Positions 7,910 to 42,159 of a DNA stretch of 64,000 nucleotides are shown piece after piece; position 1 is the stretch's first letter, and the number at the start of each line of letters is the position of its first letter. The position numbers and the translations under genes were made by a program. Source of the DNA: an uncultured Pelagibacteraceae bacterium (GTDB lineage Bacteria; Pseudomonadota; Alphaproteobacteria; Pelagibacterales; Pelagibacteraceae). The notes beneath the pieces were generated by a model. The model did not search any database. It was given only the letters and a program-made list of their open reading frames with translations, and was not told the origin of the DNA. The stretch covers positions 1 through 64,000 of the forward strand of contig CACHTB010000003.1 in NCBI GenBank assembly GCA_902582735.1. The letters are read 5' to 3'.

Positions 7910-8029
7910 TTTGAAATATTATATATATCTTTTTTTCTAAAATAGATGATTATTTCCAAAAATAAATAATCAATATTTGAATAATCACAAATATAGATTA
8001 AAAATTAATCTAAAATACTTTAATAAGTC

Positions 8030-8106
8030 GCGCCTGTAGCTCAATTGGATAGAGCGCTTGGCTACGGACCAGGAGGTTCTGGGTTCAACTCCTAGCAGGC
8101 GCACCA
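8030..8106 (+). tRNA. tRNA-Arg (anticodon ACG), CCA encoded
   Basis: Acceptor GCGCCTG/CAGGCGC, anticodon loop CTACGGA, T arm GGTTCAACTCC, 3' CCA. Confidence 0.93.
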
Positions 8107-8125
8107 AAATTGGAAAGGAATTAAT

Positions 8126-8203
8126 TTGTCGCTTCAAAAATCAGTTATTTATTTTTTTTTAATTGTGATAGTTATTCTTTTTATAATTAGTGTATTTATT
8201 TAA
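8126..8203 (+). CDS. possible 25-aa hydrophobic peptide (LSLQKSVIYFFLIVIVILFIISVFI), TTG start
   Basis: Open frame with AAAGGAATT upstream, TAATG overlap with the downstream thioesterase start; below the ORF-track length cutoff. Confidence 0.3.
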   Translation: MSLQKSVIYFFLIVIVILFIISVFI

Positions 8204-8607
8204 TGAATAAAATTTATCACCAAATAAGTAAAAAACCTGGTTTTATGAAACATAACGGTGGTTTATTTTTCAGAGATTTAACAAAAAACAAATATCAATT
8301 TAAAACAAAAGTAAAAAAAAATCATATCAATAAAGTTGGAATTACTCACGGTGGATATATTGCATCAATAATTGATGCTGGTGCAGGTACTGCAGTATAT
8401 CGATCTGCAGGAAATAAAGTCTGTGTAACTATTTCATTAGATATTAAATATATTGGTTCCTCAAAGATTGGTGATGAAATTATAGGTGATGTTAAAATTC
8501 AAAAAGTAACTAACACATTAGTTTTTATGAATTGTGAATTGAGATCAAAAAAAAATAAAATTGCTATAGCTTCAGGAGTGTGGAAAAAATTAAATAAAAA
8601 GTTATAA
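8203..8607 (+). CDS. PaaI-family hotdog thioesterase
   Basis: HGGYIASIIDAGAGTAVY..VTISLDIKYI pattern. Confidence 0.85.
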   Translation: MNKIYHQISKKPGFMKHNGGLFFRDLTKNKYQFKTKVKKNHINKVGITHGGYIASIIDAGAGTAVYRSAGNKVCVTISLDIKYIGSSKIGDEIIGDVKIQKVTNTLVFMNCELRSKKNKIAIASGVWKKLNKKL

Positions 8608-17555: not shown

Positions 17556-18031
17556 TGAATATTTTTTTAAGCAGAAAAAATTTCTATTTAGTAGTTTTAG
17601 GATATTCTATTTTAGCAATTATCTTTGCCTTATACTTAGAATATTATTTAAATTATAAGCCATGTATATTATGTCTTTATCAGAGAGTTCCTTTTATTTT
17701 AGCAATTTTTATAAGTTTTGTTGGATTTAATTTTCCAAAAAAAGATGAGGTATTGATTTTACTAATAACAACATTTGCTGTTGGTATGCTAATTTCTGGA
17801 TACCATTTTGGTATAGAAAACAATATTTTTGAAGAATTTAAGGGTTGCAGTAACAATTCTTTAAATATTACAGATAAAGCTGATTTATTAAAAAGTTTAA
17901 ATCAAACGTTACCAAGTTGTAAAGATATATCTTTTTCTTTATTTGGTATATCGCTAGCAGGATTAAACTTTTTGTCCTCTTTATTAATTCTTATTTATTC
18001 TGTAAGAACCCTTGTTTATGAAAAAAACTAA
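17555..18031 (+). CDS. dsbB: disulfide bond formation protein B
   Basis: YKPCILCLYQRVPF; four TM helices; later Cys pair. Confidence 0.87.
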   Translation: MNIFLSRKNFYLVVLGYSILAIIFALYLEYYLNYKPCILCLYQRVPFILAIFISFVGFNFPKKDEVLILLITTFAVGMLISGYHFGIENNIFEEFKGCSNNSLNITDKADLLKSLNQTLPSCKDISFSLFGISLAGLNFLSSLLILIYSVRTLVYEKN

Positions 18032-38760: not shown

Positions 38761-38771
38761 GCGTTCTGTTG
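38761..38771 (+). repeat. left 11-bp direct repeat (putative att core)
   Basis: GCGTTCTGTTG identical to 42149-42159. Confidence 0.7.
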
Positions 38772-38816: not shown

Positions 38817-38838
38817 GGTACATAGTAGGGTACATAGT
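38817..38838 (+). repeat. two GGTACATAGT repeats, 12-bp period (putative arm-type sites)
   Basis: GGTACATAGT at 38817-38826 and 38829-38838. Confidence 0.6.
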
Positions 38839-38842
38839 TAAA

Positions 38843-39406
38843 CTATGATTTCTTTGTGATGACTTTGTAATTGGGGTTTTTAGTTCTGTTGGGAAATACT
38901 TTATTGTGAATTTCTAATAAATGGTCGTCTGACATATTTTGGTAATGTTGGTTAATCATCTGAACTGAAGTATTTGAGTGAAGAGCGACTATATTGGCAT
39001 CTACACCTTTTCTTCTTCTGTCTGAAATAAATGAATGTCTATAAACATAGATTGGTCTATTTTGACCATCTTTAACAAACAAATCTAAATCATCTGAAAT
39101 TCTTTCAAAATTTTTTCTAATTCTATCAAATAACTTATCTCTATTTTCAACTCTTGGAAAAAACAGATAATCAAGTTCATTAGTATTTAGGTGTCTGTTC
39201 ATAACTCTCGGATAAACATCATCTCTATACCAATCTGCCACCGTCATTGTGTGTCTATCTTTTTTAGTCTGTAACAATGTAATCTTCATTACAGGAGTTT
39301 TAGTAGTCGGGTCATTTATCCAACCAACATTATTTCTTCTTACTCTTAATAGTTCTAAACCTGGTCTAAAACCACCCGCTTCACAAATAGATAATAAGTC
39401 TGCCAC
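38843..39406 (-). pseudogene. tyrosine recombinase/integrase, C-terminal catalytic domain only
   Basis: FRPGLELLRVRRNNV, YVYRHSFISDRRRKGVD, HYQNMSDDHL; in-frame homologous-looking sequence upstream (IWSLLQKSFYKIYDE) stops at TAG with no N-terminal domain. Confidence 0.8.
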
Positions 39407-39645
39407 TTCATCATAAATCTTATAAAAAGATTTCTGAAGTAGTGACCAAATCTACTCGTAAGAAATTTCCTCAATCGTGGGTTTTTAATATCTTAAAAAG
39501 AGAAAGTACAATTCCACCTAATGAGGAAATCGTAAGACACAATATCTGTAATGTAGAACTTCAACCTAATATCTGTGATGTTTAATTGTTTTATCAAATT
39601 GACTATTTAATAAAATTATCTACTTTACAAATATAAACTATCTTT

Positions 39646-40653
39646 ATGTATAAAAAAATTAATATTTATATTCATCCCGGTTATGGAAAAACTGGAACTA
39701 CATATTTACAAGAAAACATTTTTGACAAAATAAATTTTGTAAATCTTGGAAAACCACACAATCACAAAAACGAATTAGTTAATAAATTAATTTCATTACA
39801 ATATAAAATCTTCCAACCAAAATACTCATTTCAAAAATTATATCCTATGAATTACTCATATTCAGTGAGAAATTATGTAAGTATTTTAAAAAGTATTATT
39901 GATAAAACTGATAATACAAATTTTATGTTTTCTGATGAGTGTCTTTTTAATCATAATAATTATTTTGGATATTTTAATATATATTTGTTAAAAGAAATTT
40001 TAGATTCCCTTAATAATTATTTTGATATAAATATTAAATTTATTATATCTATTAGAAGTCAGCATCAATATTTAATTTCCAGTTTCGCTTATGATAATTA
40101 TAGAATGAAAAAAAACTTTGGATCATTCAATAATTTTTTAGATAAAATATTTAGTGACGAAGACCTTTCTGAAATTTATCAATATGATTTACAAATAAAA
40201 AAAATAAAAAAAATCTTTAATTCAGAAGTCTTAATACTGCCCTTAGAAGAATTAGAAAAAAATCATGAAAATTATATCAACCGGGTGATAAATTTTCTGG
40301 GTATTGTGAAGGAGGTAGAGTTAAATACATTTAATAATAATCCAATAAATAAAAATTCTGAATTAGTTAATAATAATAAAGTTTATTATACCCGGTCTTA
40401 TGATTTTAGAGGTGTCTTATATGAACATTTTTCGAACATACATCTGTCATTAAAGAAATACAAACTTTATCAAAAAAACTTCAAATATCTTAAATTTTTA
40501 AAAGAGTTAATAAAACCTGTTACTAAAAAGTCTGGAAAAATTCTATTAAATGAAAATCAAAAAAGAAAAATACAACAACACTTTAAACAATCTAACCAAA
40601 ATACAGAAAAAATTACTAATTTGAATTTAAAATTTTATGATTATTATGATTAA
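39646..40653 (+). CDS. sulfotransferase-like protein
   Basis: P-loop-like HPGYGKTGTTYLQ near N-terminus; RSQHQYLISSFAYDNYR; EELEKNHENYINRVINFLGI. Confidence 0.72.
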   Translation: MYKKINIYIHPGYGKTGTTYLQENIFDKINFVNLGKPHNHKNELVNKLISLQYKIFQPKYSFQKLYPMNYSYSVRNYVSILKSIIDKTDNTNFMFSDECLFNHNNYFGYFNIYLLKEILDSLNNYFDINIKFIISIRSQHQYLISSFAYDNYRMKKNFGSFNNFLDKIFSDEDLSEIYQYDLQIKKIKKIFNSEVLILPLEELEKNHENYINRVINFLGIVKEVELNTFNNNPINKNSELVNNNKVYYTRSYDFRGVLYEHFSNIHLSLKKYKLYQKNFKYLKFLKELIKPVTKKSGKILLNENQKRKIQQHFKQSNQNTEKITNLNLKFYDYYD

Positions 40654-40684: not shown

Positions 40685-40852
40685 CTAAACCCTACTCTCT
40701 ACATATCGTCTAATCAAGTTTTCAACTATATTTGACATTTTTCTCATATCTTTATCAGCGACGAGTTTAAATCTATCAATCGTATGTTTGTTAATAGTGT
40801 AATTAACTCTTTTCTTGTGTTGTTTAATTTTATCTGATTGTACTGACCACAT
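40685..40852 (-). CDS. ribbon-helix-helix-like small protein (55 aa)
   Basis: MWSVQSDKIKQHKKRVNYTINKHTIDRFKLVADKDMRKMSNIVENLIRRYVESRV; AAGGAG 8 nt upstream of ATG. Confidence 0.65.
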   Translation of the reverse strand: MWSVQSDKIKQHKKRVNYTINKHTIDRFKLVADKDMRKMSNIVENLIRRYVESRV

Positions 40853-40857
40853 TGGTA

Positions 40858-41112
40858 TTACTCCTTGATTTCGTATTTTATTTTAAGTTCATTAATTAAG
40901 TCTGATAAGAATTTACCTGTTTCTCTAATATTATAACTATCACCACTTTTACCTGAAATTTGTTTGATAAAATCTAATGTTCTATCTTTCATCATATAAA
41001 GACGATTTGATTGTAACATATTAAATAACTCATCTTCTGCTTGTTATGTGTCATAATAATTCTTCAAATTTTCTTTAGAAATTTGTTGAACAGATTGTTG
41101 TATTAAGTTCAT
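40858..41112 (-). pseudogene. small ORF of 85 codons interrupted by in-frame TAA (41044-41046)
   Basis: MNLIQQSVQQISKENLKNYYDT*QAEDELFNMLQSNRLYMMKDRTLDFIKQISGKSGDSYNIRETGKFLSDLINELKIKYEIKE. Confidence 0.55.
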
Positions 41113-41254
41113 TTCTTTTCTCTTTGAAACTTGGTTATCAATTCATTCTTATATTTGGTCACTAATTCATCTAGTTCTTTAGTAAGTGCTATTTTACCAA
41201 AGGTATCTCTAGTGGATTTTATCTTGTTCCAGATATTGTTATTTTGTGTTCCAT
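41109..41254 (-). pseudogene. small ORF with probable -1 frameshift in an A4 run (41242-41245)
   Basis: Start MEHK.. (SD AAGGA) in one frame; downstream frame NNNIWNKIKSTRDTFGKIALTKELDELVTKYKNELITKFQREKK* overlaps next ATG as ATGA. Confidence 0.45.
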
Positions 41255-41264
41255 ATTTATTTCC

Positions 41265-41687
41265 TTAAATTACGACTAATTTTTCTGGTACATAATTTGA
41301 ATGATGACCTTTTAAAGAATAAATCACATTAGCGATTTCACTATTCGCCTTTTCATTAAACAGGATAAATCTGTCGCCAAGTTTTCTGAAATAATCTGAC
41401 ATTAACTTTAGTACATAGTTTCTGTCATACTTTTTCGGTATTCTTAATATGATATGACTATGAGTATTGTTTCTTACTCTTTCAATATTACAGATAAACA
41501 TAACTCTCTTATCTGGATATTTCTGAAAGTATCTGAACAACTTTTTATTAACAAATGAGTTCAGTAAATTCAGTTTCTTTATTAGTTCTTCATTAGATAT
41601 ATTTTGGTAAGTATTAGCAACTACTACTAGGTCTTTATCTAATCTCTTATCTTTTAATATTTCTTTTATTAAGTCTTGTTTAAACAT
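41265..41687 (-). CDS. small HUH-endonuclease-like (Rep- or Y1-transposase-like) protein
   Basis: HxH motif NTHSHIILRIPKKY and downstream YxxK motif NVIYSLKGHHSN. Confidence 0.5.
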   Translation of the reverse strand: MFKQDLIKEILKDKRLDKDLVVVANTYQNISNEELIKKLNLLNSFVNKKLFRYFQKYPDKRVMFICNIERVRNNTHSHIILRIPKKYDRNYVLKLMSDYFRKLGDRFILFNEKANSEIANVIYSLKGHHSNYVPEKLVVI

Positions 41688-41739: not shown

Positions 41740-41768
41740 CTTAGAATTGCCGTTAGCGATTTCCTAAG
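41740..41768. promoter_or_regulatory. stem-loop upstream of the HUH-like gene
   Basis: CTTAG-AATTGC-CGTTA-GCGATT-TC-CTAAG. Confidence 0.4.
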
Positions 41769-42064: not shown

Positions 42065-42097
42065 GGTACATAGTCAGGTACATAGTTAGTACATAGT
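42065..42097 (+). repeat. three (G/A)GTACATAGT repeats (putative arm-type sites)
   Basis: 42065-42074, 42077-42086, 42088-42097; same sequence and spacing as at the left end. Confidence 0.6.
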
Positions 42098-42148: not shown

Positions 42149-42159
42149 GCGTTCTGTTG
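42149..42159 (+). repeat. right 11-bp direct repeat (putative att core)
   Basis: GCGTTCTGTTG identical to 38761-38771. Confidence 0.7.

What the first reader, a model, noticed from the sequence alone, without database searches (positions are those of the whole stretch)
41265..41687. Minimal HUH-endonuclease-like protein heading the element's operon
The 140-aa protein has NTHSHIILRIPKKY (HxH) and, about 45 residues later, NVIYSLKGHH (YxxK), the two hallmarks of Rep/relaxase/Y1-transposase HUH nucleases. Around HSHIILRIPKKY it also resembles the Y1 transposase pattern HxHLLxxIPPKY. An HUH nuclease together with a tyrosine integrase in 3.4 kb would suggest a tiny replicating integrative element or phage satellite. 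Motif reading is direct; function is inference.
Basis: partly seen in the sequence, partly recalled or inferred. Interest (0 to 1): 0.6.

Follow-up and report, generated by a model that had tools for sequence, protein, structure and literature searches.

The report
HUH replication protein in decayed element
A small DNA-nicking protein of the kind that starts rolling-circle replication is real here, but it sits in a broken, shrunken copy of a roughly 9-kb mobile element that inserts at the tmRNA gene end in SAR11 ocean bacteria.

Summary
The ORF is real (41265-41687, minus strand, 140 aa). Its HxH (H76, H78) and Tyr (Y123) motifs are conserved in all seven family members found (window included), all in Pelagibacteraceae/SAR11-type genomes; Y+3 is Lys or Arg. 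The two lineages are only about 20-33% identical. A profile of these proteins aligns in register with plasmid Rep_1 (pUB110-type) proteins. A modest-confidence AlphaFold model has the HUH strand/helix order and picks up HUH nucleases, including the SIRV1 ORF119 protein. So "HUH nuclease, Rep-like" is well supported; nicking and replication are inferred.

The "tiny 3.4-kb replicating element" is not supported. The window holds an internally deleted copy: its integrase lacks the N-terminal half, its serine recombinase is a C-terminal stub meeting it at the same junction, and other operon genes are broken or absent. Intact relatives are about 8-9.4 kb. The best-delimited one lies in the 3' end of the tmRNA gene and also encodes a T4 gp45-type sliding clamp. 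The window copy used a second copy of that tmRNA-end hairpin beside pnp, with an intact empty site in relatives. No relative was found in phage, plasmid or IMG/VR viral collections, so satellite status has no direct support.

The parts
41265..41687 (-). HUH-nuclease-like gene (140 aa; HxH at residues 76-78, Tyr123, Lys126), first gene of the element's operon
   Evidence: model
41740..41768 (-). Hairpin upstream of the operon with loop GCTAACGGCAATT; same hairpin with changed, still-pairing stem in L021/L049 and L022; candidate nick origin or leader (inference)
41109..41264 (-). Remnant of a small operon ORF (about 51 codons open, no standard start in frame)
   Evidence: positional counterpart of the 53-aa ORF of L002
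40858..41064 (-). Remnant of the conserved 121-127-aa operon gene, interrupted by an in-frame TAA near 41044
   Evidence: 60% identity to L021 aa 60-127
40685..40852 (-). Ribbon-helix-helix (Arc-like) regulator, intact, 55 aa
   Evidence: phrog_3180 E 9e-11; RHH_5 below cut-off; 40% identity to the L021 RHH
39646..40653 (+). Sulfotransferase-like gene in the slot that holds small exported/lipoprotein genes in relatives (cargo)
   Evidence: Sulfotransfer_1 E 4.8e-4, below cut-off; slot comparison
39397..39585 (+). C-terminal stub of a serine recombinase (resolvase type)
   Evidence: 60% identity to L021 aa 191-220; 39% to L023 aa 180-236
39397..39421 (.). Junction of an internal deletion (about 4.5 kb by comparison with L021) joining the two recombinase stubs
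   Evidence: coordinates
38843..39421 (-). C-terminal catalytic half of the tyrosine integrase; N-terminal 215-238 residues missing
   Evidence: 37-39% identity to the L021 and L022 integrases, E about 1e-39
38817..38838 (.). Left tandem GGTACATAGT repeats (integrase arm-type sites, inferred)
   Evidence: D2
42065..42097 (.). Right tandem GGTACATAGT-type repeats (integrase arm-type sites, inferred)
   Evidence: D2, D17
38761..38771 (.). Left attachment core GCGTTCTGTTG
42149..42159 (.). Right attachment core GCGTTCTGTTG, continuing into the host half CCAGGTGCCCC of the 25-nt hairpin
   Evidence: intact empty site in L033 and L039

Best explanation
The gene encodes a minimal HUH-superfamily endonuclease of the Rep type (HxH first, single catalytic Tyr C-terminal to it). 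It belongs to a family of integrative elements in SAR11-type bacteria. In an intact element (about 8-9.4 kb) the tyrosine integrase inserts and excises the element; in the best-delimited case it does so at the 3' end of the tmRNA gene. After excision the HUH protein would nick a hairpin upstream of its operon, join covalently to the 5' end and start rolling-circle replication of the circle, with the small RHH protein next to it as a likely copy or transcription regulator. Shown: the motif conservation, the conserved operon, the integration site and the empty site. Inferred: nicking, the origin and replication. The copy in this window is most likely an immobile remnant that has kept the HUH and RHH reading frames but lost working recombinases.
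For: Seven members (window plus six): both His and the Tyr invariant, Y+3 always K/R. Every one of six members scanned has a weak Rep_1 or REP_ORF2-G2P Pfam hit, below cut-offs (best 0.0011). hhalign of the family against eight plasmid Rep_1 proteins: score 31.4, E 6.4e-4, 74 columns, HSH on HMH; the window lineage alone scores 36.8, E 7.5e-5; shuffled-Rep decoys reach at most 21.8 in 100. AlphaFold model of the window protein: strand-helix-strand-strand(HxH)-helix-helix(Tyr123); Foldseek PDB hits include SIRV1 ORF119, many parvovirus Rep/NS1 nuclease domains and an S. tokodaii transposase. Conserved operon HUH - small ORFs - 121/127-aa gene - RHH in two lineages. Operon-head hairpin with compensating stem changes. 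Att cores and empty site. tmRNA as target: Rfam RF01849 E 3.6e-65. Internal deletion.
Against: Model confidence is modest (pLDDT 63.7), PDB matches are not below E 1e-3, and non-HUH ferredoxin-like folds are in the same list. The second model (L048, pLDDT 57) gave no HUH hit. Three relatives have YxxR rather than YxxK. Lineage 2 alone does not score against Rep_1 (16.2, E 0.16), and a single-sequence Rep comparison is weak. One of 200 query-shuffled decoys gave an anomalous 135.6 over 23 columns, unexplained. The hairpin was not found upstream of the lineage-2 operons. No nick site is known.
Confidence: 0.68

Rival explanations
1. The HUH protein is a Y1-type single-strand transposase or a REP-associated transposase that moves single strands, and the integrase is a neighbour by chance.
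For: HSHIILRIPKKY resembles the Y1 pattern, and one S. tokodaii transposase is in the Foldseek list (rank 38).
Against: No Y1_Tnp Pfam hit at E<=1 for any of six members. K/R at Y+3, not the Gln-containing Tyr helix of Y1 enzymes (own knowledge). The element is bounded by tyrosine-integrase att cores and arm repeats. The gene always sits in the same operon.
Confidence: 0.08
2. It is a small relaxase (mobilization protein) that nicks an oriT so that the excised element is transferred by a helper conjugation system.
For: HUH nucleases include relaxases, and small integrative mobilizable elements exist (e.g. PMC5704250, abstract seen).
Against: In classical relaxases the Tyr lies N-terminal to the HUH motif (own knowledge); here it is C-terminal. 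Pfam points to Rep families. No mobilization or conjugation gene was recognised in the elements read.
Confidence: 0.06
3. The whole element family is a set of phage satellites of T4-like SAR11 phages: the gp45-type clamp recruits the helper's polymerase to the element and rolling-circle concatemers are packaged in helper capsids, as for PICMIs. (This overlaps with the best explanation; it adds a helper phage.)
For: The intact L021 element has a full gp45-type clamp (phrog_223 E 1.5e-41; gp45-slide_C above cut-off), with homologues at under 60% identity in 742 phage records including Pelagibacter phage Mosig. Element size and gene-poor content resemble PICMIs (PMC10803314).
Against: No relative in IMG/VR, phage or plasmid collections. 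The counterpart ORF in L022 is 131 aa without a clamp hit, and lineage-2 elements lack it. No terminase or capsid gene seen.
Confidence: 0.25
4. The protein no longer cuts DNA: in this window it is a leftover or a repressor/DNA-binding remnant kept by chance after the element decayed. (Concerns the window copy only.)
For: Neighbouring element genes are truncated, interrupted or missing, and the window protein is 17 residues shorter than its closest relatives.
Against: All motif residues and the open frame are kept while neighbours broke.
Confidence: 0.3

Closest known systems
Rep_1 (PF01446) plasmid initiators of the pUB110/pC194 type
   Same: HxH motif preceded by a strand-turn in register (window KRVMFICNIERVRNNTHSHIILRIP, pUB110 NLVGFMRATEVTINNKDNSYNQHMHVLVCVEP); most frequent weak Pfam hit
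   Different: 140-167 aa against 307-414 aa; below Pfam's cut-off; no similarity by tblastn in the plasmid collection
REP_ORF2-G2P (PF23343)
   Same: weak hit spanning the HxH region for the window protein and L051
   Different: below cut-off (14.7 against 27.8 bits)
ORF119 of Sulfolobus islandicus rod-shaped virus 1 (PDB 2x3g)
   Same: minimal-size protein of the HUH class (own knowledge), third in the Foldseek PDB list (prob 0.91)
   Different: E 0.018, 18% identity; an archaeal linear virus, not an integrative element
PICMI satellites of Vibrionaceae (PMC10803314)
   Same: small marine integrative elements with an integrase, few genes and, there, rolling-circle-like concatemers
   Different: PICMIs use AlpA and a primase and integrate next to fis; no HUH Rep or gp45 clamp was named in the passages read; ours has no shown helper
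Tycheposons
   Same: tyrosine-recombinase elements of streamlined marine bacteria at RNA-gene targets with variable cargo
   Different: described as 4-200 kb with tRNA targets (as cited in PMC10872708); no marker genes were compared here

Membership tests
HUH endonuclease superfamily | Conserved HxH (HUH) metal-binding pair on a strand | tested here: met
   H-x-H in 7/7 members; in a strand (residues 74-82) in the model
HUH endonuclease superfamily | Conserved catalytic Tyr on a helix (with K at +3 in Rep-type) | tested here: met
   Tyr 7/7; K at +3 in four, R in three; Tyr123 in helix 114-126
HUH endonuclease superfamily | RRM/ferredoxin-like fold with His and Tyr in one pocket | tested here: inconclusive
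   Right order of strands and helices, HUH nucleases among Foldseek hits, but pLDDT 63.7, E>1e-3, and no coordinates to measure the pocket; second model uninformative
HUH endonuclease superfamily | Metal-dependent ssDNA cleavage with covalent 5'-phosphotyrosine | not testable with these tools
   needs purified protein
Rep_1 (PF01446) | Score above the Pfam gathering cut-off | tested here: not met
   17.2 bits against 33.2
Rep_1 (PF01446) | Profile similarity through the HUH region | tested here: met
   hhalign E 6.4e-4 for the family, 7.5e-5 for the window lineage; lineage 2 alone not significant
Y1 transposase (Y1_Tnp) | Y1_Tnp profile match | tested here: not met
   no hit at E<=1
Relaxase (MOB families) | Tyr N-terminal to the HUH motif | tested here: not met
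   the only invariant Tyr is C-terminal to HxH
Integrative element | Integrase, att cores at both ends and an empty site in relatives | tested here: met
   cores at 38761 and 42149; intact hairpin site in L033 and L039; integrase truncated in the window copy
Phage satellite | Packaging into helper particles or presence in viral sequence sets | tested here: inconclusive
   no relatives in IMG/VR, phage or plasmid collections, but the pattern scans are not exhaustive and packaging cannot be tested here

The most novel reading that the evidence does not exclude
SAR11 bacteria carry a previously undescribed family of integrative elements that pair a minimal HUH rolling-circle initiator with a phage-type (gp45) sliding clamp, so that an infecting T4-like phage's polymerase would be loaded on the element's own rolling circle, and that use the 3' end of the two-piece tmRNA gene and its dispersed copies as integration sites.
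Probability: 0.2. Interest if true: 0.72.

Novelty: new variant of a known kind. Interest (0 to 1): 0.45.

Why it matters
SAR11 is among the most abundant bacterial groups of the ocean surface, and its streamlined genomes are thought to carry few mobile elements (own knowledge). A recognisable element family with its own HUH replication protein, two recombinases and, in one intact copy, a phage-type sliding clamp gives a concrete handle on how such elements move and whether they parasitise pelagiphages. The HUH family is small (140-167 aa), far from described families, and could serve as a minimal HUH enzyme to study.

Tried and rejected
Sequence look-ups of the HUH protein in PDB sequences, phages, plasmids and viral contigs: no relative. 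Most hits near E 0.01 in genome searches are probably chance: of those opened, L024 and L057 are unrelated genes. PHROGs gave nothing usable for the HUH protein. Second AlphaFold job and its fold search: uninformative. hhalign against a single microvirus Rep: no meaningful match. Y1 transposase and relaxase readings rejected as above. Charybdis elements (PMC12324425), found in the paper search, concern archaeal hosts and lack replication hallmarks; not this. I first took the att-site hairpin for a tRNA end; Rfam shows it is the tmRNA 3' end.

Full report
Observation. The ORF is at 41265-41687 on the minus strand, 140 aa from ATG. The HxH is H76-S-H78 and the YxxK is Y123-S-L-K126. On its own, a motif pair in one small ORF could be chance, so the test is conservation.

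Homologues. A search of 397 genomes of the same family with the single protein found three clear relatives. A profile search of a same-sized draw found six genomes in all, the window's own included (G000, G310, G059, G199, G149, G356), and a scan of 84,980 species genomes added one more contig (AG-422-F10, L049). The named ones are uncultured Pelagibacteraceae genomes and alphaproteobacterium SCGC AAA028-C07; G310, in the window's genus, has a contig of the same length as the AH-324-N03 record, which places the window in Pelagibacteraceae (SAR11). They form two lineages: window/L048/L049/L050, and L051/L053/G356. Across all seven, the invariant columns include both His, the Tyr and a basic residue three after it (K in four, R in three), although the window shares 44% identity with its own lineage and the lineages share only about 20-33%. 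The second lineage reads IHTHSIIRIPRF...ATRYMTKHYH or LLHSHMILRVPKF...ATRYSSKEF, which repeats both motifs in a different sequence context.

Family. Pfam's Rep_1 (best E 0.0011, 4 of 6 members) or REP_ORF2-G2P (0.036, 2 of 6) is the only replication-type match, always below cut-offs. I built an alignment of eight plasmid Rep proteins of the pUB110 type (L073-L080) and compared profiles: score 31.4, E 6.4e-4 over 74 columns, with HSH on HMH. The window lineage alone gives 36.8, E 7.5e-5; lineage 2 alone is not significant (16.2). Column-shuffled Rep decoys reached 21.8 at most in 100; shuffled queries reached 22.8 at most in 200, apart from one anomalous value of 135.6 over 23 columns that I cannot explain. 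The AlphaFold model from five sequences has mean pLDDT 63.7 with strand 20-28, helix 32-49, strands 63-71 and 74-82 (HxH), helix 89-102, helix 114-126 (Tyr123). Foldseek in PDB lists SIRV1 ORF119 (2x3g), AAV, MVM and B19 nuclease domains and an S. tokodaii transposase at E 0.018-0.08, mixed with designed ferredoxin folds and other proteins; viral-library hits reach E 1.9e-4 but are unnamed. A second model (L048) was too poor to use. Together this supports an HUH fold of the Rep type; catalytic activity is not shown.

The element. Elements in L021 (G310), L022 (G059) and L049 share the operon ORF-A (240-269 aa) - HUH - small ORFs - 127/133-aa ORF - RHH, then small exported or lipoprotein ORFs and a serine recombinase on the other strand; L021 and L022 (L049's contig ends near the serine recombinase) go on to a 229/263-aa gene, small ORFs, a 251/260-aa gene, a clamp or clamp-position ORF, and a tyrosine integrase. 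In L021 the clamp is T4 gp45-like (phrog_223 1.5e-41; gp45-slide_C above cut-off). Elements of the second lineage (L023, L069, L070) sit beside tRNA-Leu(CAA), share the HUH - 121-aa - RHH operon, the small exported proteins and the serine recombinase, have another tyrosine integrase, and lack the clamp.

Integration site. Window cores GCGTTCTGTTG at 38761 and 42149 split a 25-nt hairpin GGGGCGTTCTGTTGCCAGGTGCCCC that is intact beside pnp in relatives L033 and L039, with no element. The same sequence is the 3' end of the tmRNA gene: in L021, Rfam alpha_tmRNA covers 7995-8294 (E 3.6e-65), and the L021 element lies between the tmRNA copy and a partial copy AACAGAACGCCCC near 17692, about 9.4 kb. 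Tandem arm repeats flank both ends in the window (GGTACATAGT) and in L021 (TTCAACGAAGTT). The window genome has its tmRNA elsewhere (C11; L045), with the hairpin intact.

Decay. The window integrase aligns only from residue 215/238 onward (38885-39421) and the serine recombinase only from about residue 180 (39397-39585); the two stubs meet at about 39.4 kb, so most simply one internal deletion, about 4.5 kb by L021 coordinates, removed everything between. The 127-aa gene has an in-frame TAA, the small ORF before it has no start in frame, and ORF-A is absent; HUH and RHH remain open. A sulfotransferase-like gene occupies the cargo slot. The 3.4-kb copy therefore probably cannot excise on its own.

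Mechanism. Proposed for intact elements: excision by the tyrosine integrase, nicking by the HUH protein, rolling-circle copying, reintegration. A hairpin with loop GCTMACGGYAATT lies upstream of the operon in L021/L049, L022 and the window, with compensating stem changes (ACTTTAA/TTAAAGT to ACTTCAA/TTGAAGT; CTTAG/CTAAG in the window). The window hairpin is weak on its own (11 of 200 shuffles fold as well). It is my best candidate for the nick origin, but it could equally be a transcript leader, and it was not found in lineage 2.

Comparison and novelty. By function it most resembles RCR plasmid modules (HUH Rep beside an RHH protein, as in CopG-type systems; own knowledge), and by size and habitat PICMI satellites (PMC10803314). 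No relatives of the element proteins queried turned up in phage, plasmid or IMG/VR sets, except distant phage clamps, so satellite status is open. I found no paper describing these elements in the library searched, which lacks most subscription journals. I rate it a new variant of a known kind.

Noticed in passing
L021 15637-16377 (G310): T4 gp45-type sliding clamp in an intact SAR11 integrative element, about 28% identical to clamps of T4-like marine phages; the counterpart ORF in L022 (12701-13096) is only 131 aa with no clamp hit.
   Followed up: partly
L033 1921-1945; L039; L042; L044; L046; G000:C11:33781: The 25-nt tmRNA 3'-end hairpin GGGGCGTTCTGTTGCCAGGTGCCCC recurs outside tmRNA next to other genes in some SAR11 genomes (exact 21-mer in 19 of 41 genomes, usually one copy, up to four), possibly footprints of such elements.
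   Followed up: partly
L023 9455-9901, L069 6180-6626, L070 11051-11497: A 148-aa lipoprotein is identical or nearly so in elements of different SAR11 genera, while the HUH gene of the same elements (L051 against L053) is only 44% identical: module exchange or very recent transfer.
   Followed up: no
window 39646-40653: Sulfotransferase-like gene inside the element remnant, in the position of the exported/lipoprotein genes of relatives; looks like swapped cargo.
   Followed up: no
L021 14006-14153: Two 38-nt repeats with an inner inverted repeat (CTGACGCTTATAGTGTCAG) 110 bp apart, upstream of the 88-, 87- and 251-aa genes; could be binding sites.
   Followed up: no
L021 8750-8876, L022 6195-6320, L049 940-1068: About 100 nt conserved ahead of ORF-A with three consecutive hairpins (z about -3 in L021 and L049, -1.2 in L022); leader RNA or origin.
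   Followed up: partly
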